A stretch of DNA of 36,831 nucleotides from a virus. A program made the position numbers and the translations under genes. Location of the stretch: positions 1-36,831 of the IMG/VR virus record IMGVR_UViG_3300031951_020888, one strand, 5' to 3'. The notes under the pieces were generated by a model. It had not been told where the DNA came from. It made no database searches and saw nothing but the letters and a program-made list of their open reading frames with translations. Position 1 is the first letter of the stretch, and each line of letters begins with the position of its first letter. Shown one piece after another: positions 3,001 to 28,144 of this stretch.

Positions 3001-3607
3001 CGGTGGCTCCGGTAGCACCCACCGGACCGGTTGCACCAGTTGGTCCCGTGGCGCCTGTAGGACCTGCAGATCCTGGGGTTCCGGATGCTCCAGCTGGTCC
3101 TGCAGGCCCGGCTGACCCCGTTGCACCCGTGGCGCCTGCAGCTCCACCTCCACCACCTGTTGTTGAGAGAGTTATCCACCTGCCTCCAGACCAGGTGATT
3201 CCTACTGCATCATAATTGTTAGATAGAACTTTTGTTGTCGATCCATCAATTAAAACTCCGCTCTTCGATGATTGAAGCATGATGTTGTTCGTAGAACACC
3301 TGCCTGCTGAATCTTTGATGTAATACAGGGTTCCTTCACGAGGTGAGGCTGGAAGTGAGATCGTTACGGATCCGTTTCCTGGTTTGATCGTTACATCTAG
3401 TATCGTGGATGCACGCCCGATCGAGTGCGTGGCACCCGGTGCGATCGAGACGGGACGAGTGCGGAGTATCAGATCTCCTGTTACCTGCAACTCCGATTCA
3501 TCCACAGGTGTACCAATCTGCACATCGGTGGTGAGTACGGTACGCTTCACACCGCCGTTCTCAGAAACAAAAACGATTACATCGTTTGGTTTTTTGTTGA
3601 TCGCCAT
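1..3607 (-). CDS. Long tail fibre-like protein with collagen-like stalk (C-terminus outside window)
   Basis: An open frame on the minus strand runs from an ATG at 3607 to the left edge with no stop (checked directly over roughly 1-1080 and translated beyond), giving about 1202 residues without the C-terminus. The start follows the upstream TGA by one base (TGAAATG), so translation is probably coupled. Order: about 145 residues of N-terminal region, a Gly-rich linker, 17 uninterrupted G-X-Y triplets (about 150-206), then Gly/Ser/Thr-rich beta sequence with three copies of an SGSLTxLxDGTSYL module, a set of short beta repeats (about 970-1066), and near the edge NVGIGTSALDARLVV. The last motif is of a type common in phage fibres ahead of a trimerising or self-cleaving chaperone domain, which would lie outside the window. 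Role by inference: receptor-binding or virion-surface fibre. Base composition is clearly GC-richer than the neighbours (60% counted over 601-660). Confidence 0.85.
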   Translation of the reverse strand, partial: MAINKKPNDVIVFVSENGGVKRTVLTTDVQIGTPVDESELQVTGDLILRTRPVSIAPGATHSIGRASTILDVTIKPGNGSVTISLPASPREGTLYYIKDSAGRCSTNNIMLQSSKSGVLIDGSTTKVLSNNYDAVGITWSGGRWITLSTTGGGGGAAGATGATGSAGPAGPAGASGTPGSAGPTGATGPTGATGPVGATGATGPIAGSDTQVIFNDGGAPAGSSLLTFNKLTGALTASTFRATNGFSGSLTRLADGTSYLIAGNNIGISSASNGSVTISTNATANSDFFFSTTAGSIYTTGSAAFIGNQVGIDSPFDVGASVNFYVSGTRTSTGADDPSIVFGGDTFISGAFGVSDYIQMKPVGNLRIPTNTSASYIYTSGSTNDLYYTQYQPGTGFTNTVRMRWFEGSLSTGLLHGGVLSTANGSTSFSITSGSGLVVDYNASTTSDPYPTVHYVSWPAFVSQSLTYSGSAQITYIGINSSGGLIQQFTPFANNDFADIISIGRVLHQSGSVTNGTITAPTVAYGLNQSNEQFNRAFGPLKVSGHLLENSGSNLSLSKTSGTSYVAGRNYTANPDSPNLILSSTDTAPTASKIFREYVSGSTPVIDNGIANAGYPTIDPTLYNNGGTLAAVSGGQFSIQRVYWFPNSVNKAFFVYYGSATYATLDLAEAAINAEAFTEGANTLDAAIYLGAVIVRGNATDLSNTSQARFVRGGLFRGADSSGGGGGGSIATVPGGLDTYVQFNDGGSTFGGDAGLTFDKINHILRIGDGTISAKLITAGATFDLVNTSATTVNFAGAATSINIGTALGTNIISGAIKAPQGLSGSLTKLTDGTSYLVAGTNIGISTGSNGSVTISNTAPIFYQWNELSPSPRLNTTASVSIAGGLGSSHAAQSIGTDVYFFVSGSSGSSSGVSAFGGDAVVSGTLQVSTISNPSIASTVTSLALSGSTRGTTATGRGISLVAATGTTTIGGGPISISAGTSGGSSSPGGSVTIAGGSTTTSATAGSITLSAGDTTSTVGSATAGNIILNAGSLPSAGTGTAGRIELTSGAANSATTPGNIILTAQKSKVVVRQSMATVPAGTNVFLYVTGTIGGTDRSLFAGDTYVSGTLFGASGLSGSLTRLIDGTSYLIAGTNITIATGSNGSVNISSPNTITGSGTANYVPKFTSERALANSIIYDDGTNVGIGTSALDARLVVAGSS
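156..262 (-). repeat. Tail fibre module copy 3 (SGSLTxLxDGTSYL)
   Basis: Third copy of a roughly 35-residue module with the core GLSGSLTRLIDGTSYLIAG followed by N-I-T-I and a GSNGSV turn. The other copies are at about 1042-1144 and 2771-2874 in the same gene. Confidence 0.75.
411..697 (-). repeat. Short tandem beta repeats in tail fibre
   Basis: About six imperfect units of 16-19 residues begin with alternating hydrophobics (ISISAG, VTIAGG, ITLSAG, IILNAG, IELTSG, IILTAQ). Each is followed by a Ser/Thr/Gly/Ala-rich turn ending in Gly. The spacing suggests a beta-solenoid or stacked beta segment in the fibre shaft. That structural reading is inference; the repeat itself is visible. Confidence 0.7.
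1042..1144 (-). repeat. Tail fibre module copy 2 (SGSLTxLxDGTSYL)
   Basis: Second copy of the module, with the core GLSGSLTKLTDGTSYLVAG and the following NIGI and GSNGSVTIS elements. Confidence 0.75.
2771..2874 (-). repeat. Tail fibre module copy 1 (SGSLTxLxDGTSYL)
   Basis: First copy of the module, not far downstream of the collagen-like stalk, with the core SGSLTRLADGTSYLIAG and the NIGI and SNGSVTIS elements. It is clearly related to the two later copies at both DNA and protein level. Confidence 0.75.
2985..3162 (-). repeat. Collagen-like G-X-Y repeat in tail fibre
   Basis: The minus-strand frame gives a short poly-Gly linker followed by 17 consecutive G-X-Y triplets (for example GAT, GPA, GPT, GPV) ending at GPI. 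Collagen-like segments of this kind are well known in phage tail fibres, where they form trimeric stalks. The matching Pro/Ala-rich frame on the plus strand is only the shadow of this repeat. Confidence 0.9.
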
Positions 3608-9375: not shown

Positions 9376-12300
9376 CTAGTACTTCTTTAGCTTTCCGACA
9401 ATTTGTTGAACCAATAAGCTGTCTTCTATTACCTGCCTATCTCCGAGGTAATTGTCGCTGTGTCTGTACGTGTTCTTGTGCCTTTCAAGAACGTGAGACT
9501 CAACTACAAAATTGGTTCCCTTGTAAAGAGTTTTGCTTGGTATGAGCTGTTCGATGAAAGACGACATCGATACATCAAACCATCGATAAAACTCGAGAAA
9601 CTTTCTAAAATCTGGTTTTCCTGAGAGTCTGTTGAAATAGACGTCTCTCAGTCTCTCAAGGTCTGGGTAGTCTGGTGAGAACATCAGCTCTGGTGCGCCT
9701 AGCGCATTATTCAAAGCGTCAAATGACGAGAACATGGAGATTATGTCTTTGTCTAGAGAGTCTACCATTGAAAATTCGATGGATAGCCTTAAGTCGTCAA
9801 CGGGCTCCTCTTGTAAGAATCTCTCGTTACTTAAGAAGCTGGGCGCCGGTATTGCCCAGGGATTCTCTTCTATTAGATCGTTGCTCTCAAAACTTCTGAT
9901 TCTAATCTTGTCGTCAGTTGCGGCTTCATCAAAGAACGGAGAAAGATATGAATAGTTGAATATCTCTCCAGAGAGAACCTTTTCTCCAGGTGAGAAACCA
10001 CTGCCTGTAGCTTCCAAATTATTCTTGCTAAAATCAAGAAACTGTATATTTCCTAGATTGTCTGAGTTTTTTTGAGGTTGCTTTTGAAGCGTGTCCAGAC
10101 GTAACTTCTGGAAAGATCCTGAAGCTTTATTGATAAAATTGTAGTTTACTAAGGGATTGTTGACACCAACAGACTTCGGATTTCTTACGTGCTCTTTCCA
10201 CTCTTCCGCAGTCATAGATTTTGTCCAAAATCTAAGATTACCAGCTCTGCCTACGAATTCTGTCGTTCTTGCAACGTCGTCGACGTTTAGCGTGTCATTC
10301 AAGAACAGGTATCCAATTCCTTCGGGAATTGTCTGATTAGATCCAATCGATATAAAGGAGCCCGAAGAATTGTACTGTATCGATCCAGTTCTAAAAATAT
10401 TCCCAGCGTTAGCTGGGTCTTCTTGAAAGTATGATGCGGTAACATAAGCATCTGAAAGCTCTCCTGATTCACACTTTCCAACCCTGAGATAGTAAGAAGA
10501 AGAAACGTCTGATTCTATTTCGTCGTTTCTTTTACATCCGAGCGACACATTCCAGACGTCTCCGTCAAATATTCCTTTTCCTCTCATGTCAATGTTGAGA
10601 GAAAGCACGGGAGAATTAGACGACATGCCAGGTCTCAAGAATGCCTTGATGGATGCAGGCTGCTTTGGATATTCTTTGTTCTGTACGGCTACAACGTTTG
10701 CAATAAGACCAGGACCTGACGTAACATTGCTGCCCGTTACAAATATCCTAAAGATAGATTGACCTTCTGCGCTTGTCGCTTGAGATAATTTTTGGGGAGG
10801 AATTTTGAATATTGCCTCCATGTTCCAAGAGCCCGACGTCAATAGACCGTCCCATTGATAGTCAGTTCCTAGATTGACGCCAAGATCATTTTTATAAAAA
10901 TTACCTCTCGGTAAAGGGAACCCAGGTTCAACTCTAGAAGACGATAGCGGGTAAGTAACTACGAGGGAAGAAGTTAGAAAATCGACCATCGCAAGCGACT
11001 CTATCCTCTTTTCTCTTGATGAAGACAGCTGCTTTATGGATGATCCACCGTATTCTCTTATTCTAATGCTGTTATCAGGATCTATTCCAATCGATCTCAA
11101 GAAAGATCTTATGCTGTGTTGAGTACCTTTTGACCTGATGATGTCAGGCATGTTTATTAGCACTCTTCGTGTTAAAATTGATTGTATCTTCTTTAGCGGA
11201 GTTTCAAAATTTGTTAAACCCTCTATTGCCTGACCCTCAGCAAATTGTTCAACTGTAGAATTGTTAAAGAACTTAGGAAGATAGAAGCCATAGTGTCTAA
11301 TCATGTCTTCTAGAAAGTTGTCTGGTATGCTCTCTTCGTCGTTGTAGCTTACCGTCTTGAGAGTCACAAAAGCGTCTATGTAAGTTTTAATCTCATCAAA
11401 GAATTTTGCCCAAATGTAAAGAAAAGACAGAATTATCTGTACAGAGCCTCTCTTTCCTTGACCCGGTATCCCTTCTCCTCCGTAAGGACTACCTCCTTCT
11501 CCTTCGATCGTGTTAAATCCATCCTGAGAAGCACCCTCGAGAAGATAGTGCTGCGGGATTAATTTAATAATATTGTTGGGATTATTTCTGTCGAAGTTGC
11601 TTGCTGACAAGAGCAAGCTTGCGTTTAGATTTAAAATCTCAGAGTAAGCAGGAAATAATATTTTTTGAAAGTCGCTTCTTTCATTGACAAGCAGGTTACC
11701 TTCTTGGTCAGATGCATTAATTCTAAGATCGCTATTGAAATTATTCACATTTGCATGCAAAGAATTACCAGAACTGTCAAGGACAATTGAATCAATTGAA
11801 GAATTTCCATTCAAAGAAAGAGAACCGGAGGGTTCATTAAATCTATAATATAGCTTCAAATCAGGGGTCGAGTATAGACCCATCGAAGAGAAGAGTTTTT
11901 GAGTTTTTTCATCTCTGACAGAGTGAAAAACTCTTAGTTCATCCATCGTTCCGCTTAGAGTTTGAGTTGGACTAACAAGTGTATCACCTGAATAGAAGGA
12001 GCTGCCTGACCCTATCAAGAAGTTTGAATTGTCTATGTTTAACTTTTTAATTCTTAAAGAATTGAAACTTTGTGAGGCAAGAGTTTCGTTTACATAGAAC
12101 TGTAGGACATCTTCCCTTGTGTCTTGTTTGTTAAGAATTAAGCATAGATGATTGTATTTGCCTTTTGCTAGTGTTGCAGTAACATTATTTCTTACAGATC
12201 CGGAAGCAACGCAGAATACAGCATTTGTGTATTCTGTCGATGAAGAGGGCTCTAGGTAAAAAGTAAAACCATCTATCAGTGACGATGTTTTTTGAATTAC

Positions 12301-12873
12301 AATCTGTGTGTCATTCGTAATTGTTGGTAAAAATAGTAAAATCTCCAAAGAAAGAGAATCACCATCCCCGGGATTTAATACGGGCTCTCCCTTCTTGTTC
12401 TTTGCGAGGTCGGGATACAACGTTCCAGATTTATCCTTGACAGATATCCAGTTGCCGCTGTTAGATGAAGGAATTTCTCCTACTTGCGTGCCAGAAAAGT
12501 GAAGAGCTCCCGACCACGTAGGAAAAGAATCAAATACCCACTTCTCATATCCCGTAAGAGAATCTAAAAATTCTTCTACTTCTTTTTTTGTTCCATCAAA
12601 GGGATAACCATTAATGATTCTATTGAATGCTTCGTTAACTTTGACCTCTGCCGAAGAGAAAAATGTATGATTTTCAAACTTCGACCAGTCTAGATTTATC
12701 TGCTGTGTGCTTTTTAATGGATAGTCTAGTGGATCGTATTTAAAAGAATTTTCACTTTCGCTGTTAGAGTCCGAAAGATTAAAGTCTGAGTAGCTTAGCT
12801 GTATGGGCCTGGTGTCCCTAATTGAGCTTTTTATGAAAGAAGGTACAAAAGGAGAGTTGGATCTAGTTGTCAT
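9376..12873 (-). CDS. LamG-domain baseplate wedge protein, gp7/gpI-like candidate (1165 aa)
   Basis: Residues about 120-390 look like a laminin-G/concanavalin-type domain: SGALHFSG, SLSLEILL, the strand MDELRVFHSVR (about 320-330), LKLYYRFNEPSGS and VLDSSGNSLHANV. The middle (about 490-620) is helical and includes IIRSKGTQHSIRSFLRSIGI, which resembles the conserved 'KGT' segment of P2 gpI-type tail proteins that partner gpJ; T4 gp7 partners gp6 in the wedge. A second LamG-like stretch occurs at about 680-900 (LFLNDTLNV then GRAGNLRFWTKSMTAEEW). The C-terminus is helical and aromatic. The start is supported by a strong Shine-Dalgarno (AAAGGAGA, 6 nt before ATG). LamG is firmly visible; the gp7/gpI assignment is inference from the KGT segment and proximity to the gp6-like gene. 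LamG domains often bind carbohydrate or protein. Confidence 0.75.
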   Translation of the reverse strand: MTTRSNSPFVPSFIKSSIRDTRPIQLSYSDFNLSDSNSESENSFKYDPLDYPLKSTQQINLDWSKFENHTFFSSAEVKVNEAFNRIINGYPFDGTKKEVEEFLDSLTGYEKWVFDSFPTWSGALHFSGTQVGEIPSSNSGNWISVKDKSGTLYPDLAKNKKGEPVLNPGDGDSLSLEILLFLPTITNDTQIVIQKTSSLIDGFTFYLEPSSSTEYTNAVFCVASGSVRNNVTATLAKGKYNHLCLILNKQDTREDVLQFYVNETLASQSFNSLRIKKLNIDNSNFLIGSGSSFYSGDTLVSPTQTLSGTMDELRVFHSVRDEKTQKLFSSMGLYSTPDLKLYYRFNEPSGSLSLNGNSSIDSIVLDSSGNSLHANVNNFNSDLRINASDQEGNLLVNERSDFQKILFPAYSEILNLNASLLLSASNFDRNNPNNIIKLIPQHYLLEGASQDGFNTIEGEGGSPYGGEGIPGQGKRGSVQIILSFLYIWAKFFDEIKTYIDAFVTLKTVSYNDEESIPDNFLEDMIRHYGFYLPKFFNNSTVEQFAEGQAIEGLTNFETPLKKIQSILTRRVLINMPDIIRSKGTQHSIRSFLRSIGIDPDNSIRIREYGGSSIKQLSSSREKRIESLAMVDFLTSSLVVTYPLSSSRVEPGFPLPRGNFYKNDLGVNLGTDYQWDGLLTSGSWNMEAIFKIPPQKLSQATSAEGQSIFRIFVTGSNVTSGPGLIANVVAVQNKEYPKQPASIKAFLRPGMSSNSPVLSLNIDMRGKGIFDGDVWNVSLGCKRNDEIESDVSSSYYLRVGKCESGELSDAYVTASYFQEDPANAGNIFRTGSIQYNSSGSFISIGSNQTIPEGIGYLFLNDTLNVDDVARTTEFVGRAGNLRFWTKSMTAEEWKEHVRNPKSVGVNNPLVNYNFINKASGSFQKLRLDTLQKQPQKNSDNLGNIQFLDFSKNNLEATGSGFSPGEKVLSGEIFNYSYLSPFFDEAATDDKIRIRSFESNDLIEENPWAIPAPSFLSNERFLQEEPVDDLRLSIEFSMVDSLDKDIISMFSSFDALNNALGAPELMFSPDYPDLERLRDVYFNRLSGKPDFRKFLEFYRWFDVSMSSFIEQLIPSKTLYKGTNFVVESHVLERHKNTYRHSDNYLGDRQVIEDSLLVQQIVGKLKKY

Positions 12874-19467: not shown

Positions 19468-19772
19468 TCTTCTTCTTTGCCTTCTATTGAATCTTCAATC
19501 ATAGAATCATCTAGTAATTTTGCAACTCGTACGACAGCATTTTTTGATTCTATGATGTCTTTTATTAAGTTTCTCACAACGGGTTCATCAGAAAAAACCT
19601 CTAATTTAGCTTTTTGCTCGATCTTTTTGGATTGGATTTCGAGTATTTCTAAAGAATTCTCAAGAGCTTCTTGTATTTCGTCTATCTTTTCCATAAGCTC
19701 TATGTTCTTTTTTAGACTTATGGCTAGAAATGACGCAATCAAAAAAAATGATACTGAAACAATTTCTATCAT
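19464..19772 (-). CDS. Small membrane-anchored coiled-coil protein (102 aa)
   Basis: The start is the ATG at 19772, which overlaps the stop codon of the upstream glycosyltransferase by one base (TAATG) and has AGAGG about 10 nt before it. The longer frame to 19865 would lie inside that gene and is less likely. Residues 3-21 (EIVSVSFFLIASFLAISLK) form one hydrophobic segment, followed by a Glu/Lys/Ile-rich probable coiled coil (KIDEIQEALENSLEILEIQ) and an acidic C-terminus (EGKEEE). I do not recognise a family. Topology is probably one N-terminal membrane anchor with a cytoplasmic coil. It is the only clear membrane protein in the window. Confidence 0.72.
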   Translation of the reverse strand: MIEIVSVSFFLIASFLAISLKKNIELMEKIDEIQEALENSLEILEIQSKKIEQKAKLEVFSDEPVVRNLIKDIIESKNAVVRVAKLLDDSMIEDSIEGKEEE

Positions 19773-20968
19773 TACATCATGCCTCTTGTAGCTTCTTCGT
19801 ATAAAGATTTTACAGCTTCTATTGAATATTTCTTTTGTATTTTTTCTCTTAGATCTTTTGCCCATTCCTTTGGAATGGTCGAAGCTGATCTGAACTTCAT
19901 GACTTTTTTCTTAAAGTCGTCTTCTATTACATTTGCCCACTTACTCCCCTTCATAAAAATTCTGTTGTCGACTCTAGAGGGATGAATTTCAGAAAGCTTG
20001 TAGTCGATTTCGATAAATTTTCCGTGAGATAAAAAGTCCTTGTGACCCGACCAATTCGTTGCCATGACAGGAAGACCTGACGCTGCAGCTTCAAGAATTG
20101 GTAATCCGTACCCTTCTCCCTTTGTTAGAGAAACTAGACATTTAATCTTGGGATGTCTGTACAAAGAGCTAATTTCTTCGTCGGACATGTCTCCGTGAAT
20201 TAAATGAATTCTTGGGAATGGGCCTTTTCTTACTTCCTTGATCAAGGCTTCGAAAGTTTGTTGCATTAATCTTCTATCAATACAAGTATTTCTACCAGAA
20301 TTTGTCTTTATTACGATGCCTGCGTCCGGGTCCTTGGAAAAAACTTCGCACAACCACTTAACTGTATAAAAGATGTTCTTTCTTTCATTTTCTGGATTGT
20401 TCCCAGTTATTTGTCCAAAAATTAAAAAATTAAAGCTAGTAGAAAAATCTAATTCATCAACTCTAGTCTCTTTAAAATTAAGAATTGCGTTTGAATAAGC
20501 TTCGGGAATTACTTCGATACGAGTTAAAATTTTACCAGTATTGCACAAACTGCTTTTTGCATGCAAAGAAGGAACAATGATTAAAGACATCTTATTGCAA
20601 CAACTTACCCACTCAGGATTGCATCTATCTGTTTCAACAGAAGCTGTAATTCCAATGTTTGTATTGGAAAATTGAGTATCCCATTCATTTGGTAATTGAA
20701 CCTGAACGGTAGCGTCATATCTTTTGCCCGTGGGATCCACTGTCCTTTCCATAATCCTGCCGACAAATCCGTCATATAGATTTTTATCAATTAACCACGG
20801 AGTGTCACCCCAGGGAAGAGCTTGAACTTCAACGTCAAGGTCGTCTCTATCGAACAGCCATTTTGCAACTTGCCTTGTGTGTACACCGTACCCAGATTGG
20901 GTAAGAACTGGTCCCCTGAGTAAGACTTTCTTTCTTTCTGATTTGCTTGTCATTTCAAATAGATTCAT
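19772..20968 (-). CDS. GT4-type glycosyltransferase (398 aa)
   Basis: GT-B glycosyltransferase of the GT4/Glycos_transf_1 kind. The N-terminus has the acceptor-domain pattern KVLLRGPVLTQSGYGVHTRQ. The C-terminal domain has KCLVSLTKGEGYGLPILEAA with the E-x7-E motif (EGYGLPILE) that binds the donor nucleotide-sugar, followed by SGLPVMATNWSG. Known family role: transfer of a sugar from a nucleotide-sugar donor with retention; donor and acceptor cannot be read from sequence. The 4-nt overlap with the upstream GT4 gene and the 1-nt overlap with the membrane protein make it the link between the sugar cassette and the late-transcription genes. The two adjacent GT4 proteins share a 'SGxGxxTRQ/QAR' N-terminal loop and may be distant paralogues. 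Confidence 0.85.
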   Translation of the reverse strand: MNLFEMTSKSERKKVLLRGPVLTQSGYGVHTRQVAKWLFDRDDLDVEVQALPWGDTPWLIDKNLYDGFVGRIMERTVDPTGKRYDATVQVQLPNEWDTQFSNTNIGITASVETDRCNPEWVSCCNKMSLIIVPSLHAKSSLCNTGKILTRIEVIPEAYSNAILNFKETRVDELDFSTSFNFLIFGQITGNNPENERKNIFYTVKWLCEVFSKDPDAGIVIKTNSGRNTCIDRRLMQQTFEALIKEVRKGPFPRIHLIHGDMSDEEISSLYRHPKIKCLVSLTKGEGYGLPILEAAASGLPVMATNWSGHKDFLSHGKFIEIDYKLSEIHPSRVDNRIFMKGSKWANVIEDDFKKKVMKFRSASTIPKEWAKDLREKIQKKYSIEAVKSLYEEATRGMM

Positions 20969-22218
20969 AGTTCAATGGCCTTCCACAGTGGATTTTCCTT
21001 TGAATTCCACTTCTCTATTGTATCGCTTAAAGTCCTATCCCAATCATCGACGACTTTTTTAAGACTGTATTCACTTCTTGCTCTTTCCATTGCCCTTAGA
21101 CCAAGAGATTCTCGTGCTTCAGACCCCATTTCATACATCTTCATGAATGCATTCTTGACAGTTTCATGAGAGACAAAATCTTCATAGATGTAAGGAACCA
21201 TGTGATTTCCTACCATCGTTCTGACCTCTGGTTCCATTCCGATTCCGAACTGCTCACCTGTCTCTGGATCTTCAACTTGACGAGTTAAACCACCCGTCTT
21301 AATTGCGATGATGGGCTTTCCACACATCATCATTTCGAGAGTGGGGAGCCCAAAACCTTCATTGCAACTCCTATTGATGATTGTGTCACATACGTTGTAA
21401 AGGGATTTCATTTCATGAAATCCAATTCTATCTTTTGAAAAGACGATATTGTCCTTTATCTCCAGAAGGTCTATGACCTGATGAAGGTTAGTTCCTTCTT
21501 GATCCATGGGATCAGTGTGCAAAACAAGCGTTGCTTTTTTGTGTCCGTGCTTTTCTTCTAATTCATTAATAAAATCTCTCCAAGATACAAGAATATCACT
21601 TACCATTTTTCTTCTTGCATTTCTTGAAACATACAGACACGTAAAGTGGTCTATTCTTTCTTGACCCAAGAGAGCTGATTTAAACTTTAGCGTCTCTTCG
21701 CTTGGAATTGGACAAAATAGATCTTCTGGTACTGCATGAGGGATATAATTTGTTTTTTCAGGAAATCTTTCCTTTACCATCTCGTACGTTGGATAGTTAA
21801 TGCAGTTAATTAAATCTGTAGATTCATATAGAGGTCTGTTAAAATCTGGCCACGGAGGATTATCCCATAGATGCCAATAAACTATTGGGCATATTTGGTG
21901 TATCTCATCAGACATCTCCCACGTCCAGATAAAAAATCTAGGATCTGTGAAGAGAAAGACTGCGTCTGGTCTTACCTGGGCAAGAGTTTTTCTTAGAAGA
22001 GACTTATCTCCAAACCCGTTTGTTGGCTTGATGATGAAATCTGGGTTGACAACTACAGTTTCGTAGCTGTCATGCCTGATTGCGCCTCCAAAGCACTTAA
22101 AACTGTATTTGCCTGTGTTTATGAGGCCATTTATCAACCAACGTGCTTGAGTTCCAACACCGGAAGTGCTCAAGGGGTGATCCGACAAAAATAAGATAGT
22201 CTTCTTTTGATTCTGCAT
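20965..22218 (-). CDS. GT4-type glycosyltransferase (about 417 aa)
   Basis: The preferred start is the ATG at 22218 (MQNQKKTILFLSDHPL), preceded by AGGG at short spacing; a TTG six codons upstream is the alternative. N-terminal domain: ILFLSDHPLSTSGVGTQARW. C-terminal domain: NEGFGLPTLEMMMCGKPII with the GT4 E-x7-E motif (EGFGLPTLE), then KTGGLTRQVEDPETG, a long bacterial/phage form. The central YWHLWDNPPWPDFN aromatic cluster is unusual and may shape the acceptor site. It follows the nuclease gene after a 45-bp gap and overlaps the next GT4 by 4 nt. Substrate unknown. Confidence 0.85.
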   Translation of the reverse strand: MQNQKKTILFLSDHPLSTSGVGTQARWLINGLINTGKYSFKCFGGAIRHDSYETVVVNPDFIIKPTNGFGDKSLLRKTLAQVRPDAVFLFTDPRFFIWTWEMSDEIHQICPIVYWHLWDNPPWPDFNRPLYESTDLINCINYPTYEMVKERFPEKTNYIPHAVPEDLFCPIPSEETLKFKSALLGQERIDHFTCLYVSRNARRKMVSDILVSWRDFINELEEKHGHKKATLVLHTDPMDQEGTNLHQVIDLLEIKDNIVFSKDRIGFHEMKSLYNVCDTIINRSCNEGFGLPTLEMMMCGKPIIAIKTGGLTRQVEDPETGEQFGIGMEPEVRTMVGNHMVPYIYEDFVSHETVKNAFMKMYEMGSEARESLGLRAMERARSEYSLKKVVDDWDRTLSDTIEKWNSKENPLWKAIEL

Positions 22219-22263
22219 TGTCCCTATATTACCCAAAAATGAAAAGTTGTAATAAAAGTTAGA

Positions 22264-23076
22264 TCAAGTGCAGTGTTCTGTTCCCTTGTACTCACAGTAC
22301 GTACAGGAATCTCTGTTCTTCAGGGCGATTCCGCGCTTGACTGAGGTGATCATGTTGCTGACAACCTTGAGAGACTTCTTGATGGGAACATCACCCATGG
22401 AGACGGAGAAGAGTTCACAGTGTTGGCCAGGTTTCGCCGACTTCTTGAGGATGGCGAAGGCACACCTGATATCCTTGAAGGGAACCTGTGGGTTCTTCTG
22501 GTGCCAATAGTTCTTGTAGAGGGCCAATTGGGCCTTGGTCATCTCATCCGAACGCTTCTCTCGCCTCCACCCATTCGCGGAAGTCTTCCAGTCGATGATC
22601 CAGTAGAGGTCTTCCCCTCGCTTACCTTTGCACTTGATAACGCCATCGATGAAGCCTTTGAATGCGTGGGGATGACCCTCCACTGATTCATATAGGGCAT
22701 GCTCCGCATCCACAACAGTCCACTCCGGAAACTCCCTGTCAAGGAAGGCAGGAACCTCCAAGAGAATTGATTCGGACTCTGTCTTGGCAACCTTTAATGC
22801 CTTTTCTGAGAATTCTTCCTGACCACTGTGTTTGGTCCATGCCTCATCAAGAGCATCGTGACACAACTTCACGTCCATCTCGCGAGTGAGTAGGTACTTC
22901 TCGCAGGACGCGTGGACTGCTGTACCAAACTCAAGCACGGGTGAGGGCTTGAAGAAATCGATCTTCTTCACGTGGGTGAGGTGGTGTCTGTAGGAACAAT
23001 CCTTCCAGGTCTTCACCTCCGAAAAAGATACGTGCGGTTTGCCTGTTGGAAGTACTTGGAATTCAGTTTCTGACAT
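22264..23076 (-). CDS. PD-(D/E)XK nuclease, RecB/Cas4-like with probable Fe-S cysteines
   Basis: 270 residues with the RecB-family nuclease order: H55 in FGTAVHASCEKYL, D134 in FKGFIDGVIK, D152-W-K154 in IIDWKTS, and Q173/Y177 in AQLALYKNY. Four cysteines sit as in Fe-S nucleases of the AddB/Cas4 type: C27 in WKDCSYR near the N-terminus, and C258-x2-C261-x7-C269 at the extreme C-terminus. Known family role: DNA end processing or exonuclease activity in replication and recombination. There is no sugar-related function, so it looks out of place in the cassette. It is GC-richer than its neighbours (55% counted over 22381-22440) and flanked by gaps of 36 and 45 bp. No clear Shine-Dalgarno precedes the ATG, and an inverted repeat ends at the start codon. 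Confidence 0.88.
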   Translation of the reverse strand: MSETEFQVLPTGKPHVSFSEVKTWKDCSYRHHLTHVKKIDFFKPSPVLEFGTAVHASCEKYLLTREMDVKLCHDALDEAWTKHSGQEEFSEKALKVAKTESESILLEVPAFLDREFPEWTVVDAEHALYESVEGHPHAFKGFIDGVIKCKGKRGEDLYWIIDWKTSANGWRREKRSDEMTKAQLALYKNYWHQKNPQVPFKDIRCAFAILKKSAKPGQHCELFSVSMGDVPIKKSLKVVSNMITSVKRGIALKNRDSCTYCEYKGTEHCT

Positions 23077-23095
23077 GTTAGTTTTGATACTAACA
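23076..23095. repeat. Perfect 7-bp inverted repeat at nuclease start codon
   Basis: TGTTAGT, a 6-base loop (TTTGAT), then ACTAACA: a perfect hairpin or dyad in the 36-bp gap whose last stem base is the A of the nuclease ATG. It could be an operator, a translational hairpin, or a remnant of the insertion junction. There is no T-run, so it is not a convincing terminator. Confidence 0.55.
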
Positions 23096-23112
23096 CGTGA
23101 GACGGTAACAGT

Positions 23113-24027
23113 TCAAGTTCTCTTCTTTGACACGGCCCGACCTGACATCTTCTCCCAATCTCTATGCTCAGGTTGCCGCACCTCGAGGTTCTTCTCCCAG
23201 GCAGCAATTAGAATTTTTGGATCCACTCCGTTCTTCTTGGCGACACTAATCATGGCATTGATGTCCTTTGGAAAGCAGTGACCACCATACCCCCTATATC
23301 CATCTGGTCCGGGTACATTCCAGTGACTCTTTCCTACTCTTTCATCGTAAGATGCATATTCAACCACCTTGTCATAGTCGACATTGAGGCCGGAGGCATC
23401 GAGAGCCTCACAAATCTGAGCCATCTCGTTTGCAAATGCAACCTTAACTGTAAGAAAATTATTAGTTAGATACTTGATCATCTCTGCAGTTGTCGAAGAT
23501 GTCTTCACTATTGGTACGTTGCTAAAAGCTATTCTAAAAATCTGCTTGACTTGGTTGATCCAAGGGCGCGGGCCTCCAAGAATTATTCTATCTTGATTTC
23601 TCATGTCTTCTAAGGCTGTTCTCTCAGTTAAAAACTCTGGATTGAACACAACTCTTAGCTCGGAATTTTCATACTTTTTATTCCAAGATTCTGTAGATCC
23701 TGGTGGCACCGTTGACTTGACAACTGCTATCCTCTTGCCGGGTATTTCTGCTAATTGATCAAGAACTTCATTGACAATGCTTAAATCTGCAGATCCATCT
23801 TCGAACATAGGAGTCGGCAAACAAACAAAGTAAATGCCTGAAAAATCTTTCTGAGATTCTGATATATCTACTAAATCTTTGATGCTGCTTGGTCTATGTT
23901 TGCTTACTCCATTTGCAATCTTTCCAGCCTTGTCATAAGCTATAACATTAAATCCCTTTTCAGAAAAAACAGTGCTTAAAGATCCGCCTACAAATCCCTG
24001 TCCTATGACAGCAATTGTCTTGTTCAT
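23113..24027 (-). CDS. UDP-glucose 6-dehydrogenase-like enzyme, short form
   Basis: 304 residues. N-terminal NAD-binding domain: IAVIGQGFVGG (G9-x-G11-x2-G14), CLPTP, KSTVPPGST (104-112). Central domain: FNPEFLTE (about 128-135), AEMIKYLTNNF with the conserved Lys and Asn, and YGGHCFPKD with the catalytic Cys at 251. Known reaction: oxidation of UDP-glucose to UDP-glucuronate (or a related UDP/GDP-sugar) with two NAD+. The usual C-terminal UDP-binding domain of about 100 residues is missing (family members are mostly 390-450 aa), so substrate range is uncertain. Base composition changes within the gene: the N-terminal part is about 35% GC (23941-24000), the C-terminal part about 50% (23161-23220). 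Start ATG at 24027 overlaps the upstream GT2 gene by 4 nt. Confidence 0.82.
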   Translation of the reverse strand: MNKTIAVIGQGFVGGSLSTVFSEKGFNVIAYDKAGKIANGVSKHRPSSIKDLVDISESQKDFSGIYFVCLPTPMFEDGSADLSIVNEVLDQLAEIPGKRIAVVKSTVPPGSTESWNKKYENSELRVVFNPEFLTERTALEDMRNQDRIILGGPRPWINQVKQIFRIAFSNVPIVKTSSTTAEMIKYLTNNFLTVKVAFANEMAQICEALDASGLNVDYDKVVEYASYDERVGKSHWNVPGPDGYRGYGGHCFPKDINAMISVAKKNGVDPKILIAAWEKNLEVRQPEHRDWEKMSGRAVSKKRT

Positions 24028-24671
24028 TGATATTTTCCTTTAAGAAGAGTATCGTATATTTTTAATTCTTCAGAATTGTTGGTTCTGTTGTGTTCATGCA
24101 TTCTATACCTGTATAGAGATACTGGTAGATGAAAGATCTTGAACCTATTTGAAAATCTTTCAATGAGATCATGTCCTTCCCTCATTTTAAAATTTTCATC
24201 ATAGAAATTAATATCGCATAAAGATTCATATGTAAACATGATTCCACATGCAATAGGCTCTTCTTGATAAGAGCATACTTTAATAGGAGTTCCTACCTCA
24301 TTTACCTTGCTATAGTCGCAAGAGACTGCCTGGTAGGTTCTGTTTAAGTCGAGTATTAAGGATAAAGTTTGTAAAAAGTGAGAAGAAACATAGTCGTCAC
24401 TGTCCACTCTAACAAAATATCTTCCTCTTGCAGTCTTTAGTATTTTATTTAAAGACGAAGGAAGCCCTAAATTTGTAGGATTTTTTATGATTCTGACGTT
24501 AATTCTATCCTTGACAATTTCACAAACATCTTCCAAAGATTCTTCAGGATCGTCGTTTACAATGACAACTTCGAATTCATCTTTTGGTAAAGTCTGATTC
24601 TCAAGGCTTCTGAGGCAACGATATAGCCACTTTTTCTGCTTATAGCAAGAAATTCCAACAGTTACTTTCAT
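24024..24671 (-). CDS. GT2 family glycosyltransferase (215 aa)
   Basis: GT-A fold family 2 transferase. The N-terminus VTVGISCYKQKKWLYRCLRSLE is the typical nucleotide-binding start, followed by VVIVNDDPEES, then NPTNLGLPSSLNKILKTARG and the metal-binding DxD region YFVRVDSDDYV. The later REGHDL could supply the ED-type catalytic pair (E/H-D). Short for the family (usually 230-330) but the core is complete. Donor and acceptor unknown. It lies 6 bp after the 2-hydroxyacid dehydrogenase and overlaps the UDP-glucose dehydrogenase gene by 4 nt. Confidence 0.85.
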   Translation of the reverse strand: MKVTVGISCYKQKKWLYRCLRSLENQTLPKDEFEVVIVNDDPEESLEDVCEIVKDRINVRIIKNPTNLGLPSSLNKILKTARGRYFVRVDSDDYVSSHFLQTLSLILDLNRTYQAVSCDYSKVNEVGTPIKVCSYQEEPIACGIMFTYESLCDINFYDENFKMREGHDLIERFSNRFKIFHLPVSLYRYRMHEHNRTNNSEELKIYDTLLKGKYQ

Positions 24672-24677
24672 CTATTC

Positions 24678-25598
24678 TTAGACCTTTACTGAAAGATTAA
24701 TGACGGCTTCAAGCGCTTTTTTTTGGCTTTCTATGGTAGCTCCTGCCACGTGAGGGGTTATTATCACGTCTTCTCTTGCCTTTGAAAGACTTAAAAGTCT
24801 TGATTTTTTTAATTCATTTACATCTTGTTCTCCGCAAAGAACATCTGCTGCAAATCTTATAGACTTGTTTTCTATTAAGTGACAAATATACCTCTCGTCA
24901 ACAACTTCTCCTCGAGAGGTATTCACAACTATTGATCCTTCTTTTAAGTCGTCTAGAGAGCCCCACGTTATCATTCCGTAGGTCTCAGAAGTTAAATAAC
25001 AATTAATGCTTATTATGTGGCATTGACACAATTCATGTAAATTGCTAATTTTTTTGGCGTATTCGGGGGCAAGTTCTTGATTGACATAAGGGTCGTAGTA
25101 GAATATCTCAAGCCCAAAAGAGTTTGCGTACTTTGCGATCTTTTTTCCTATTCTACCTAGACCTATAATTCCAATTTTTTTGCCGTGTAATTCATTAGAT
25201 CTAAGAAAATTTTCGTTAGACTTGTCTCTCCAGCTATCGACGTTCTTTATAGAAAGACTGAATTTTCTACACAAATTCATTATGTGAATCCAGGTAAACT
25301 CTGCCGAAGCATGAATATTGTCCAACGAATCTCTATCGTCAAGCAAGCATAAAGTCTTTACGTTTCTTTCTTTTAGATAGTTCACATCTATGTGGTTCAC
25401 ACCGGTAGACGGTGTTGCAACTACCTTCAAAGACTTTATGCTAGAAAAGTGTCTTTTATCGAGAAATTTTTCTGTTCCTGGATTGACGACGAGAATTTCT
25501 GGGTCTTTGTCATCTACGACAAGACTGTGTCGTAGCAAGAGAGAAGATAAATCTTCTTTGCTGTAAAAGTCTAAGGGACACTCAAATTTTACCTTCAT
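24678..25598 (-). CDS. D-2-hydroxyacid dehydrogenase (SerA-like)
   Basis: 306 residues with the D-isomer-specific 2-hydroxyacid dehydrogenase layout. The substrate-side half contains [18 protein letters not shown]. The Rossmann half has [18 protein letters not shown] (GxGxxG) with the acidic YYDPY after it. The catalytic triad is visible as Arg in [12 protein letters not shown], Glu in LCGEQDV and His in ITPHVAGAT. Known family reaction: NAD(H)-dependent interconversion of D-2-hydroxyacids and 2-oxoacids (3-phosphoglycerate dehydrogenase, glycerate dehydrogenase and relatives). The start overlaps the cytidylyltransferase gene by 17 nt. Its role in a NeuB/NeuA neighbourhood is unclear; it may make or modify a precursor of the CMP-activated sugar acid. 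That is inference. Confidence 0.82.
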
Positions 25599-26295
25599 TT
25601 TTTAGCCTAATAAGAGTTTCAGCAAGATAAAAATCTATCATTGAGTCTATGTTGACTGAATGCAATTCATCCATGACATAAGGTCTAGAAACATTGCCGT
25701 TTCTTGAAAAGAACTCAACAATGCACTTTCTAGTCATTGCATAAATTGCGCCATTTCTAATATAGCAGGCTTCTAAATCCTGTCTCCTTGAACCCTCTCC
25801 CTCTGGGAATTCCTTGCAAAAATCTTGCAAAGTATCTTCGGAAGTTATTCTTTTCATTCTTACAGGATGTTTGTCCTGCATCTTACAGACAGATATGACG
25901 CTATCTGCATTTGTCGCCACTAACTTATCAATTGCTTCTTTTATGTGAAGCTCATTTCTAAGAGGAGATACGCAAGGTAGTTCCACTACGTAGTCGTATG
26001 TCTTGTGAAATATTTTTTCACATTCCAGTACAGCGTGTTTTAGCGCGTCTCTTGACCAAACGGAGTCTCCTGACAGTTCTTCAGGTCTAACGAAGGGAAC
26101 ACTTGCTCCAAAAGACTTTGCAACTTCTGCAATTTCTTTGGAATCTGTACTTACAACAAAGTCTTCAAAAAGTCCTGTCTTTAAAGCAGCCTCAATCGTA
26201 TAGCCTATCAAAGGCTTTCCTTCAAGTAGCTTAATATTCTTTTTTGGTATGCCTTTTGATCCACCCCTAGCCAGAATAACTCCGAGTATTTTCAT
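25582..26295 (-). CDS. CMP-sugar acid cytidylyltransferase (NeuA/PseF-like)
   Basis: 237 residues. The signature [23 protein letters not shown] (from about residue 7) is the CMP-NeuAc synthetase-type nucleotide-binding loop. [40 protein letters not shown] and [11 protein letters not shown] are the following conserved blocks of the family. Known reaction: CTP plus a nonulosonic acid or related 3-deoxy sugar acid gives the CMP-sugar. It overlaps NeuB by 4 nt (ATGA), which fits a coupled synthase-activase pair. Exact sugar (sialic, legionaminic, pseudaminic or other) cannot be read. Confidence 0.85.
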
Positions 26296-27011
26296 GGAAT
26301 CCTCTTTAATTCTTTGGTCTTGTTTCTACAAATTAAGATCTCATCTCCCATTCGTCTGAGATCGCATAGCTCTTTTAAATCCATAGAACCTATGTGATCA
26401 TTTCCTTGTGAAGATTTGTTCAAAGTAAAGTGCTTTTCTATCACATTTGCACCGAGCGCTATGTGATACAAACAATTGGATATTCCATATCCGTGGTCAC
26501 TTAACCCAACTACTCTATTGTCGTAAGAATAGTATTGGTGCTCTGAAAGATAATTTATGCTTGTCGGATATTTTGAAATACAGTTAAAATAAAACACGTT
26601 CGGAAGTGTAGAAAGTAATAAATCTTCTTTCCACATGCCAAGAGAAACATAGGAATTGATTCCTGTTTTTATTATTTTTTCAAATAAATCAGGCTCTTTA
26701 ACAAGTGTTCTACTTGCCACTTTAAAGTTTTTGACGTTTAGATCTAGACACCACTGTAATTTTTCTTCATCAAAAACAGATGCAAAAAATTCAATACCGT
26801 ATGTGTCACAGATGTCTTTGATGTCTTTTACTTGATTAAAAGTAAATTCATTCTTCTTTCTTGATTCATCACCAAAGACTCTAACAGAATCGTATAGTTG
26901 AAACTTTGCGAAATCTGCACCACCAGATTTCGATTGCCTTACCAGCTCTTCTATTAATCTAAAATCACCGTTATGATTAATTCCTATCTCTGATATAATG
27001 CTTAATTTCAT
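26292..27011 (-). CDS. NeuB-like sugar acid synthase, catalytic barrel only
   Basis: 239 residues covering the NeuB TIM barrel. [12 protein letters not shown] (5-16), [53 protein letters not shown] and [19 protein letters not shown] are the expected conserved blocks, in order. Known reaction: PEP-dependent aldol-type condensation with an N-acyl amino sugar to give a nonulosonic acid. The C-terminal SAF/antifreeze-like domain (about 60-80 residues) found in most NeuB proteins (about 345 aa) is absent. The start is supported by the ATGA overlap with the GT-B-like gene. No NeuC (UDP-GlcNAc 2-epimerase) is recognised nearby, so the amino-sugar substrate source is open. Confidence 0.85.
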
Positions 27012-28144
27012 ATTTTGTCATTATACAGCATATCTTTTACTATTTCAACTATTTTTTGGATTGATTCAGTTCTTTCAAAGTAATCATTTTCTTCTTTGTG
27101 AACTTTTTCAAACTTAAAGACGTCTTGAATTGACTTAATCTCTTTGTTATAAATGTCATCCGGATAGACAATACCTTTTAGATAATTGACAGACTTATAG
27201 TAAGGTTTGTCTGAATGATTTGAAGTATAGGACTGATTTTTTGTAAAATGAGTTTCCCAAGAAACGTGAGAACCAGACATGTTAAACAAAGAATCGCAGT
27301 GAGAAATAGCTTCAAAGTGATCTTGACTCTCCAGTATTATTATCTCAGGAAACATAGACCTTATTAGTTCATATTGAGGAACGTCAGAGAAAGTACGTCT
27401 ATAAACTCCTGTATACTTTTCATCACTATCATAGAAAAGATAGTCATTGGGATATGTCTTTACCATGACTTTGGCATCTATCTCTTTTGATGCTTCTACA
27501 ATTCTTTTTAAGATTTCAATATTTTCATTGAATTGAATCTTGTGTGATCCTGGATTGGAGGGACACACCAGTATTTTTCTTTTATTCTCTAGCTGATACT
27601 TTTTTTCGAAAAGACTAATATCTTTGGTAATTGCGTAGGGATCGTAATGGGGAGATCCTGTGACAAATATGTTGTCTTTATTTATCCCCAAGTTACCTAG
27701 CCAATTTTTCCAAATTTTTCCTTTTACGAAGTAAAAGGTTGAAAAATGGGGAGCATTTGTCAAGATGTCCGCGCCTCCTATGTCCCAGCAAGCAACTGGG
27801 CATTTCAAGCTTCTTTTTATTTCGTGTGGATACCTGGTCTTTGGAGCGATGTGAACAGAGGAAAGAATTAATCTGTAATTTTTGCTACACTTATAAAGAT
27901 CTTCCCAGTCTTTCAAAACAACCAAAGAGTCATTCTTGGAAAAGATATCTGTAGAAAATCTATACCTTTCCTTGTCTCCAAATTTTTTATTTAATCTAAT
28001 GTCTTTCTCAAACATTAGGAGATCTGCTTCTATGCCTTGAGATTTTAGTCTATCTAAAAGCTCAATTCCGTCGTAAGGAATGCTACTCCAGAAAAAATCT
28101 CCTAGTAGAACAGCTACTTTTTTTACTTCTTTACTATGAACCAT
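27008..28144 (-). CDS. GT-B fold protein, glycosyltransferase or epimerase-like (unassigned)
   Basis: 378 residues that look like two Rossmann-type halves: KKVAVLLGDFFWSSIPYDGI at the N-terminus, and DNIFVTGSPHYDPYA (about 158-171) at the domain junction, a pattern seen in UDP-GlcNAc 2-epimerase-like and CDP-glycerol-transferase-like proteins. RKILVCPSNPGSHK and KVMVKTYPND follow, then SHCDSLFNMSGSHVSWETHF near the donor-site region. No GT4 E-x7-E motif. It sits directly upstream of NeuB (4-nt overlap), where NeuC is often found, but it does not start like NeuC. It could be a transferase of the sugar acid or a divergent 2-epimerase. The start overlaps the TylF gene by 22 nt. Confidence 0.6.
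   Translation of the reverse strand: MVHSKEVKKVAVLLGDFFWSSIPYDGIELLDRLKSQGIEADLLMFEKDIRLNKKFGDKERYRFSTDIFSKNDSLVVLKDWEDLYKCSKNYRLILSSVHIAPKTRYPHEIKRSLKCPVACWDIGGADILTNAPHFSTFYFVKGKIWKNWLGNLGINKDNIFVTGSPHYDPYAITKDISLFEKKYQLENKRKILVCPSNPGSHKIQFNENIEILKRIVEASKEIDAKVMVKTYPNDYLFYDSDEKYTGVYRRTFSDVPQYELIRSMFPEIIILESQDHFEAISHCDSLFNMSGSHVSWETHFTKNQSYTSNHSDKPYYKSVNYLKGIVYPDDIYNKEIKSIQDVFKFEKVHKEENDYFERTESIQKIVEIVKDMLYNDKI

What the first reader, a model, noticed from the sequence alone, without database searches (positions are those of the whole stretch)
24678..27011. NeuB-NeuA-hydroxyacid dehydrogenase trio without NeuC
Three overlapping genes encode a NeuB-like synthase (barrel only, no SAF domain), a CMP-sugar acid cytidylyltransferase and a D-2-hydroxyacid dehydrogenase with an intact R/E/H triad. 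A CMP-activated sugar acid seems likely, but the usual 2-epimerase is not recognised, and the dehydrogenase is an unexpected partner. The phage may make a non-standard nonulosonic or 3-deoxy acid, or draw on a host precursor.
Basis: partly seen in the sequence, partly recalled or inferred. Interest (0 to 1): 0.65.

Follow-up and report, generated by a model that had tools for sequence, protein, structure and literature searches.

The report
Phage sugar-acid cassette with dehydrogenase partner
A marine virus of bacteria carries a compact four-gene kit that probably builds, activates and attaches an unusual sialic-acid-like sugar, and an unexplained redox enzyme in the kit is its regular partner in unrelated viruses and bacteria too.

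Summary
Three intact overlapping genes encode a barrel-only NeuB, a NeuA/PseF-like cytidylyltransferase and a D-2-hydroxyacid dehydrogenase (DH). A GT2 glycosyltransferase completes the unit. The same unit lies in 19 other viral contigs, with one exception for NeuA (L007). It also occurs in bacteria: about nine Pseudomonadota genomes and one genome of a second phylum have NeuA and DH fused in one reading frame, and several of these have the same GT2 and a SAF-less NeuB next door. DH-only searches of three further phyla gave 16 hits; 12 had both NeuB and NeuA nearby, against 0 of 10 ordinary 2-hydroxyacid dehydrogenases. So the DH is a recurrent, dedicated partner, not an odd neighbour. The synthase belongs to a separate SAF-less clan, keeps the PEP/metal residues, and carries an 'SRT' substrate-site motif shared with its bacterial counterparts. 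No curated cut-off for sialic, pseudaminic or Kdo enzymes is reached. 'Without NeuC' is less sure: the gene just upstream is a weak 2-epimerase-superfamily protein. Best reading: a CMP-ulosonic (nonulosonate-like) acid cassette with a pathway-specific NAD dehydrogenase. The exact sugar and the DH substrate are unknown. The held literature has only one sentence on a related fusion (Leptospira santarosai).

The parts
26292..27011 (-). SAF-less NeuB-type synthase (239 aa, 'KVASRT' site)
   Evidence: Pfam NeuB E=2.3e-34; AlphaFold pLDDT 88.3, best PDB matches NeuB/PseI/SpsE, KDO8PS and DAHPS far lower; metal/PEP residues kept; 228-239 aa in full-length phage relatives
25582..26295 (-). NeuA/PseF-like cytidylyltransferase (237 aa)
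   Evidence: CTP_transf_3 E=6.2e-24; PseF 161.8 bits, below cut-off 205.7; GSKGIPKKN and RRQDL..RNGAIY motifs
24678..25598 (-). D-2-hydroxyacid dehydrogenase of the NeuA-linked subfamily (306 aa)
   Evidence: 2-Hacid_dh_C E=2.1e-39; GxGRIG, D169, R229/E257/H283 invariant; subfamily split 98/99 from generic 2-HADHs; fused to NeuA in bacteria
24024..24671 (-). GT2 glycosyltransferase of the same conserved unit (215 aa)
   Evidence: Pfam GT2 E=3.9e-21; GT2 beside bacterial NeuA-DH fusions scores 245-267 bits with the viral GT2 profile, against under 47 for unrelated GT2s
23113..24027 (-). Short UGDH-like dehydrogenase without the C-terminal UDP-binding domain (304 aa); usual but not universal neighbour
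   Evidence: PF03721+PF00984 only; catalytic GGHCFPKD kept; downstream of GT2 in nearly all viral relatives
27008..28144 (-). GT-B/2-epimerase-superfamily protein (378 aa), possible NeuC-like enzyme or glycosyltransferase; optional
   Evidence: Epimerase_2 E=1.4e-4 and NeuC E=2.6e-5, both below cut-off; fold search best hits are 2-epimerases incl. NeuC, model pLDDT 64; found otherwise in L003, L005, L032, L033 only

Best explanation
The genes are a mobile, self-contained cassette for making and transferring a CMP-activated 3-deoxy-2-ulosonic acid of the nonulosonate (sialic-acid-like) kind. A SAF-less NeuB condenses PEP with an aldose supplied by the host or neighbouring sugar genes; NeuA couples the acid to CMP; the GT2 (in some relatives also a GT29 sialyltransferase-like enzyme) transfers it to a phage- or host-made glycan. 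The dehydrogenase is a dedicated pathway enzyme whose substrate or product meets NeuA: an NAD(H)-dependent interconversion of an alpha-keto and a D-alpha-hydroxy acid on a carboxylate-bearing intermediate. Shown here: intact genes, catalytic residues, conserved linkage, NeuA-DH fusion, separate synthase clan. Inferred: the reactions, the order of steps, the DH substrate (least certain) and the biological target.
For: (1) Linkage: 19 other viral contigs carry the DH with NeuB and/or NeuA (L099 is cut at the contig end), and all but L007 with the NeuA homologue. (2) NeuA-DH fusions of 590-630 aa in about nine of 398 Pseudomonadota genomes and 577 aa in another phylum, with homologous GT2 and/or SAF-less NeuB adjacent in several. 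(3) Predictive test: 12 of 16 DH-only hits in three more phyla have NeuB and NeuA within about 8 kb, against 0 of 10 control 2-HADHs (Fisher p=1.9e-4). (4) NeuB fold with metal/PEP residues kept. (5) SRT motif shared by the viral, the bacterial trio-short and three further SAF-less synthases. (6) GT29 genes at the unit in L033 (E=1.9e-18), L111 (E=2.4e-12), L006 and L009 (E about 1e-6 to 1e-5). (7) 16 of 19 trio-bearing bacteria also have a standard NeuC, and 12 of 17 genomes searched a standard NeuB, on other contigs, so the unit is a separate pathway.
Against: No product or activity is known. A free NeuB product reduced at C2 could not be a normal CMP donor, so a DH acting simply on C1/C2 after NeuB does not fit easily. 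In four bacteria (L117-L120) the NeuA half of the fusion has lost its motifs while the DH half is intact, so DH need not depend on its fused NeuA. CMP-sugar transfer by a GT2 would be unusual (background knowledge). NeuA residue N215 stands where sialic-acid CMP synthetases have a metal-binding Asp (recalled; alignments).
Confidence: 0.62

Rival explanations
1. The DH makes a small D-2-hydroxy acid (D-glycerate, D-lactate, glycolate) used as an acyl decoration of an otherwise ordinary nonulosonic acid.
For: Hydroxyacyl groups are known on bacterial nonulosonates (background knowledge); deacetylase and formyltransferase genes lie beside the unit in L114 and apparently L237, so acyl exchange is plausible.
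Against: No acyl-activating or acyl-transferring enzyme is part of the conserved unit; adjacency and fusion of the DH to NeuA point to the activation step instead.
Confidence: 0.15
2. The cassette makes a chain-end dicarboxylic ulosonic acid: the UGDH-like enzyme oxidises the terminal carbon and the DH works on the alpha-hydroxyl next to that second carboxylate (oxidation or epimerisation).
For: A short UGDH without the UDP-binding domain follows GT2 in nearly all viral relatives; UGDH-like genes also lie near the unit in bacterial L233, L234, L237 and L246. The chemistry gives DH a normal D-2-hydroxy acid substrate that is still compatible with CMP activation.
Against: UGDH profile matches are absent from the L140-L157 bacterial loci; UGDH is common in polysaccharide loci for other reasons; no such nonulosonate is known to me.
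Confidence: 0.12
3. The trio is a standard Neu5Ac/legionaminic/pseudaminic set with the upstream 378-aa gene as NeuC, and the DH is a hitchhiking SerA-like gene.
For: Upstream gene gives weak NeuC and best-fold NeuC matches; NeuA is nearest to PseF.
Against: The DH linkage recurs across phyla; the synthase lies in its own clan apart from canonical NeuB/PseI and below cut-offs; the upstream gene was found in only four other contigs; canonical NeuC-NeuB pairs lie elsewhere in the same bacteria.
Confidence: 0.08

Closest known systems
Sialic, legionaminic and pseudaminic acid synthases (NeuB/LegI/PseI; TIGR03569, TIGR03586)
   Same: TIM barrel, PEP/metal residues, gene beside a CMP transferase
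   Different: No SAF domain; separate clan; E134 position is Thr in an SRT motif; 129 and 100 bits against cut-offs of 399.65 and 340.25
CMP-sugar synthetases (PseF TIGR03584, NeuA, KdsB)
   Same: CTP_transf_3 fold and NTP motif; closest to PseF
   Different: 161.8 bits against cut-off 205.7; often joined or fused to the DH
D-3-phosphoglycerate dehydrogenase and other D-2-hydroxyacid dehydrogenases
   Same: Fold, NAD motif, R/E/H triad
   Different: 148 bits against PGDH cut-off 454; the Arg residues of PGDH at two substrate-side positions are Asn39 and Thr62; own subfamily tied to NeuA
Leptospira santarosai NeuB-type protein with a phosphoglycerate dehydrogenase domain (PMC4758666)
   Same: Only published mention found of a sialic-acid-type enzyme joined to a PGDH domain
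   Different: One sentence, no function; fusion partner reported as the synthetase, here it is NeuA; sequence not compared
B. subtilis sps legionaminic acid pathway (PMC7439481)
   Same: NeuB-type and CMP-transferase genes in a surface-glycan locus; SpsF-type transferases replace NeuA in some relatives (L007, apparently L234 and L237)
   Different: No 2-hydroxyacid dehydrogenase known to me in it (only the start of the abstract was seen)

Membership tests
NeuB/PseI nonulosonate synthase | NeuB TIM barrel | tested here: met
   Pfam E=2.3e-34; fold matches 6ncs E=4.8e-16, PseI, NeuB, SpsE
NeuB/PseI nonulosonate synthase | PEP and metal-site residues | tested here: met
   Equivalents of E25, K53, Q55, K129, S154, Y186, S213, H215, E234, H236, D247 present (residue roles recalled)
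NeuB/PseI nonulosonate synthase | C-terminal SAF (antifreeze-like) domain supplying Arg314 | tested here: not met
   Protein ends at the barrel in the window and all full-length group I relatives
NeuB/PseI nonulosonate synthase | Curated equivalog cut-off | tested here: not met
   129 of 399.65 bits (NeuB) and 100.2 of 340.25 (PseI)
PseF/NeuA CMP-sugar synthetase | CTP_transf_3 domain and nucleotide motif | tested here: met
PseF/NeuA CMP-sugar synthetase | PseF equivalog cut-off | tested here: not met
   161.8 of 205.7 bits; PseF is best family for the window protein and matches all 13 members
D-2-hydroxyacid dehydrogenase superfamily | NAD motif and R/E/H triad | tested here: met
   Invariant in 18 sequences
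Phosphoglycerate dehydrogenase (SerA) | PGDH cut-off and substrate-side Arg residues | tested here: not met
   148.4 of 454 bits; Arg positions are Asn39 and Thr62 (alignment; their role recalled)
NeuC UDP-GlcNAc 2-epimerase (upstream 378-aa gene) | Family cut-off, fold and catalytic motifs | tested here: inconclusive
   NeuC 23.3 of 235.9 bits; fold best hit NeuC but TM about 0.4 on a pLDDT 64 model; HR..EN motif of 2-epimerases not seen by eye
Any CMP-nonulosonate pathway | Product identified by mass spectrometry | not testable with these tools
   Needs expression and LC-MS

The most novel reading that the evidence does not exclude
A so far undescribed class of CMP-ulosonic acid pathway, spread by phages and found in several bacterial phyla, defined by an SRT-type SAF-less synthase and a dedicated NAD-dependent 2-hydroxyacid dehydrogenase joined or fused to the CMP-transferase, making a nonulosonate (for example an oxidised or dicarboxylic one) not yet known in nature.
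Probability: 0.35. Interest if true: 0.78.

Novelty: new variant of a known kind. Interest (0 to 1): 0.58.

Why it matters
If true, sialic-acid-like sugar pathways have an unrecognised redox branch, flagged by a simple genomic signature (NeuA joined to a 2-hydroxyacid dehydrogenase) found in marine phages and in at least four bacterial phyla. It gives a concrete route to a possibly new sugar acid, explains clusters that annotation calls 'phosphoglycerate dehydrogenase', and shows phages carrying and swapping whole sugar-acid cassettes at one genomic site, which bears on how phages and hosts change surface glycans.

Tried and rejected
KDO8P/DAHP synthase as the true identity of the barrel: fold search puts NeuB, PseI and SpsE far ahead. 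Kdo pathway for NeuA: PseF beats KdsB models for the window protein. SerA/serine metabolism for the DH: cut-off and Arg residues not met. An upstream family (c8, alignment A7) that looked GT42-like by eye: no PDB profile support, left unassigned. Host assignment: distant matches to Flavobacterium and Microcystis phages at about 30%; no psbA-type gene in 15 records; host left open. Phage records: only 26-30% NeuB relatives. Literature searches for the combination found no functional study. NeuC as a required partner: the upstream gene was found in only four other contigs.

Full report
WHAT IS THERE. The window is a 36.8 kb viral record. Its - strand reads, in order of transcription, a long run of sugar genes (gmd-like dehydratase, glycosyltransferases, methyltransferases), then 27008-28144 (378 aa), NeuB 26292-27011, NeuA 25582-26295, DH 24678-25598, GT2 24024-24671, a short UGDH 23113-24027, then a PD-(D/E)XK nuclease, two GT4s, a late-sigma-like protein, T4-type baseplate genes and a collagen-like fibre protein. 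The three genes of the finding are intact, overlap, and have highly significant domain matches.

THE UNIT IS CONSERVED. A search with NeuB, then with profiles, gave 19 other viral contigs that carry the DH family, plus a near-identical twin of the window (L002). The order NeuB-NeuA-DH-GT2 recurs, although a gene can be inserted (methyltransferase in L003 and L013, GT29-type in L006 and L009, three genes between DH and GT2 in L111), and the usual follower is a short UGDH-like gene with or without an SDR, while upstream genes differ. Identities to the window in the main group are 60-68% (NeuB), 64-83% (NeuA), 52-66% (DH) and 56-73% (GT2). L007 lacks the NeuA homologue and has instead a fused NeuB plus SpsF-type transferase. 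L111, L113 and L114 keep NeuA and DH but have another short NeuB. L033 is more divergent (NeuB 49%, DH 45%); L090 is a distant version in a GC-rich contig (NeuA 41%, NeuB and DH 31%).

BACTERIA. The DH profile was run over 398 genomes of one phylum (the phylum of a Pelagibacteraceae genome, i.e. Pseudomonadota): 23 had matches at E<=1e-44. In about nine of them (L117-L125) NeuA and DH form one reading frame of 590-630 aa. A GT2 lies beside the fusion in L117-L119 and L121-L125, and a SAF-less NeuB of about 228-250 aa near it in L118, L119, L122 (L144), L143 and L146. In L141/L142 the genes form an evident operon: fusion, GT2 (4-base overlap), NeuB. That GT2 scores 245-267 bits with the viral GT2 profile; unrelated GT2s score under 47. 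Other genomes (L126-L139) mostly have DH beside NeuA and/or a SAF-containing NeuB. In L117-L120 the NeuA half has lost the GSKGIPxKN, RRQDL and RNGA motifs while the DH half stays intact.

PREDICTIVE TEST. A DH-only profile (A10), which separates unit DHs (>=300 bits) from generic ones (<=171 bits) in the loci then held, was run on 345, 340 and 338 genomes of three further phyla. All 16 hits were fetched. Twelve have both NeuB and NeuA/SpsF-type genes within about 8 kb, DH and NeuA usually touching; one (L233) is a full fusion-GT2-SAF-less NeuB unit. Of ten control neighbourhoods around ordinary 2-hydroxyacid dehydrogenases, none has both and one has a NeuB-like gene. Fisher p=1.9e-4 for both, 1.8e-3 for either. 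Caveats: the DH profile was built from DHs that lie in such units, but the tested genomes are new; several hits score 228-276 bits, between the two calibration groups.

WHAT THE SYNTHASE IS. A 68-sequence tree puts the viral NeuBs, a second viral SAF-less group, the bacterial short NeuBs and L090 in one clan, split by a strongly supported branch (100/99) from canonical NeuB, PseI and SAF-bearing synthases; the window's group is monophyletic (98/88). The model (pLDDT 88) matches NeuB-family structures best. PEP and metal residues are kept, while the E134 position of N. meningitidis NeuB is Thr in an S-R-T motif shared with the bacterial short NeuBs and with L036, and by eye with L233, L234 and L237 (sequences). 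This suggests one shared, non-standard acceptor sugar. Residue roles are recalled from the NeuB literature.

WHAT THE DEHYDROGENASE IS. All unit DHs lie on one side of a 98/99 branch from generic 2-HADHs; long branches make the inner order unsure. The NAD motif, an Asp expected for NAD rather than NADP, and the R/E/H triad are invariant, so activity is expected. PGDH is not its identity.

MECHANISM. Shown: genes, residues, linkage, fusion. Inferred: PEP + aldose to 3-deoxy-2-ulosonic acid (NeuB*), CMP activation (NeuA), transfer (GT2, perhaps GT29 in relatives), and a DH step on a carboxylate-bearing intermediate next to NeuA. Reduction of C2 itself would spoil the donor, so either the DH oxidises toward the ulosonic acid or it works at another alpha-hydroxy acid of the molecule. 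I put the whole-cassette reading at 0.62 and do not claim the DH substrate.

NEUC. The upstream 378-aa protein has the GT-B/2-epimerase fold with weak NeuC similarity, and a distantly related gene stands before the second viral SAF-less NeuB group. It was found in only four other contigs of the group. Bacteria with the unit mostly have a standard NeuC and NeuB elsewhere. So NeuC is not part of the unit, but the title 'without NeuC' is not proven for this phage.

KNOWN OR NEW. No paper in the held library was found that describes NeuB-NeuA-2-hydroxyacid dehydrogenase. [quoted passage not shown] that species showed no identifiable nonulosonic acid (PMC3438082). I file the finding as a new variant of the CMP-nonulosonate kind.

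Noticed in passing
L044, L045, L057 against window 19772-27011: Close relatives of this phage (65-76% identity in PD-(D/E)XK and GT423, up to 72% in the sigma gene) have, at the same site, a different SAF-less NeuB/short NeuA/GT2 set without the DH (32-39%): whole sugar-acid cassettes seem to be exchanged at one place.
   Followed up: partly
23113-24027 and L006:7181-8044: UGDH-like proteins of about 280-310 aa lack the C-terminal UDP-binding domain but keep the catalytic Cys motif; they may act on something other than UDP-sugars.
   Followed up: partly
L117-L120: NeuA halves of NeuA-DH fusions with all catalytic motifs lost, joined to an intact dehydrogenase.
   Followed up: partly
L007:8684-10456: A 590-aa fusion of a second NeuB (apparently with SAF) and an SpsF-type cytidylyltransferase replaces NeuA in this phage.
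   Followed up: partly
L115:13319-15915: A Pelagibacteraceae genome has DH, NeuA-like, DH in tandem about 10 kb from its NeuB.
   Followed up: partly
L006, L009, L033, L111: GT29 (eukaryotic-type sialyltransferase family) genes in phage genomes at or inside the sugar-acid cassette.
   Followed up: partly
2-3607 and 9376-12873: Collagen-like fibre protein running off the window end, and a 1165-aa tail-region protein with a Laminin-G-like domain.
   Followed up: no
L090/L116:703-4391: GC-rich viral contig where a 398-aa ORF resembling an FMN-dependent hydroxyacid oxidase (by eye) lies between NeuB and DH.
   Followed up: no
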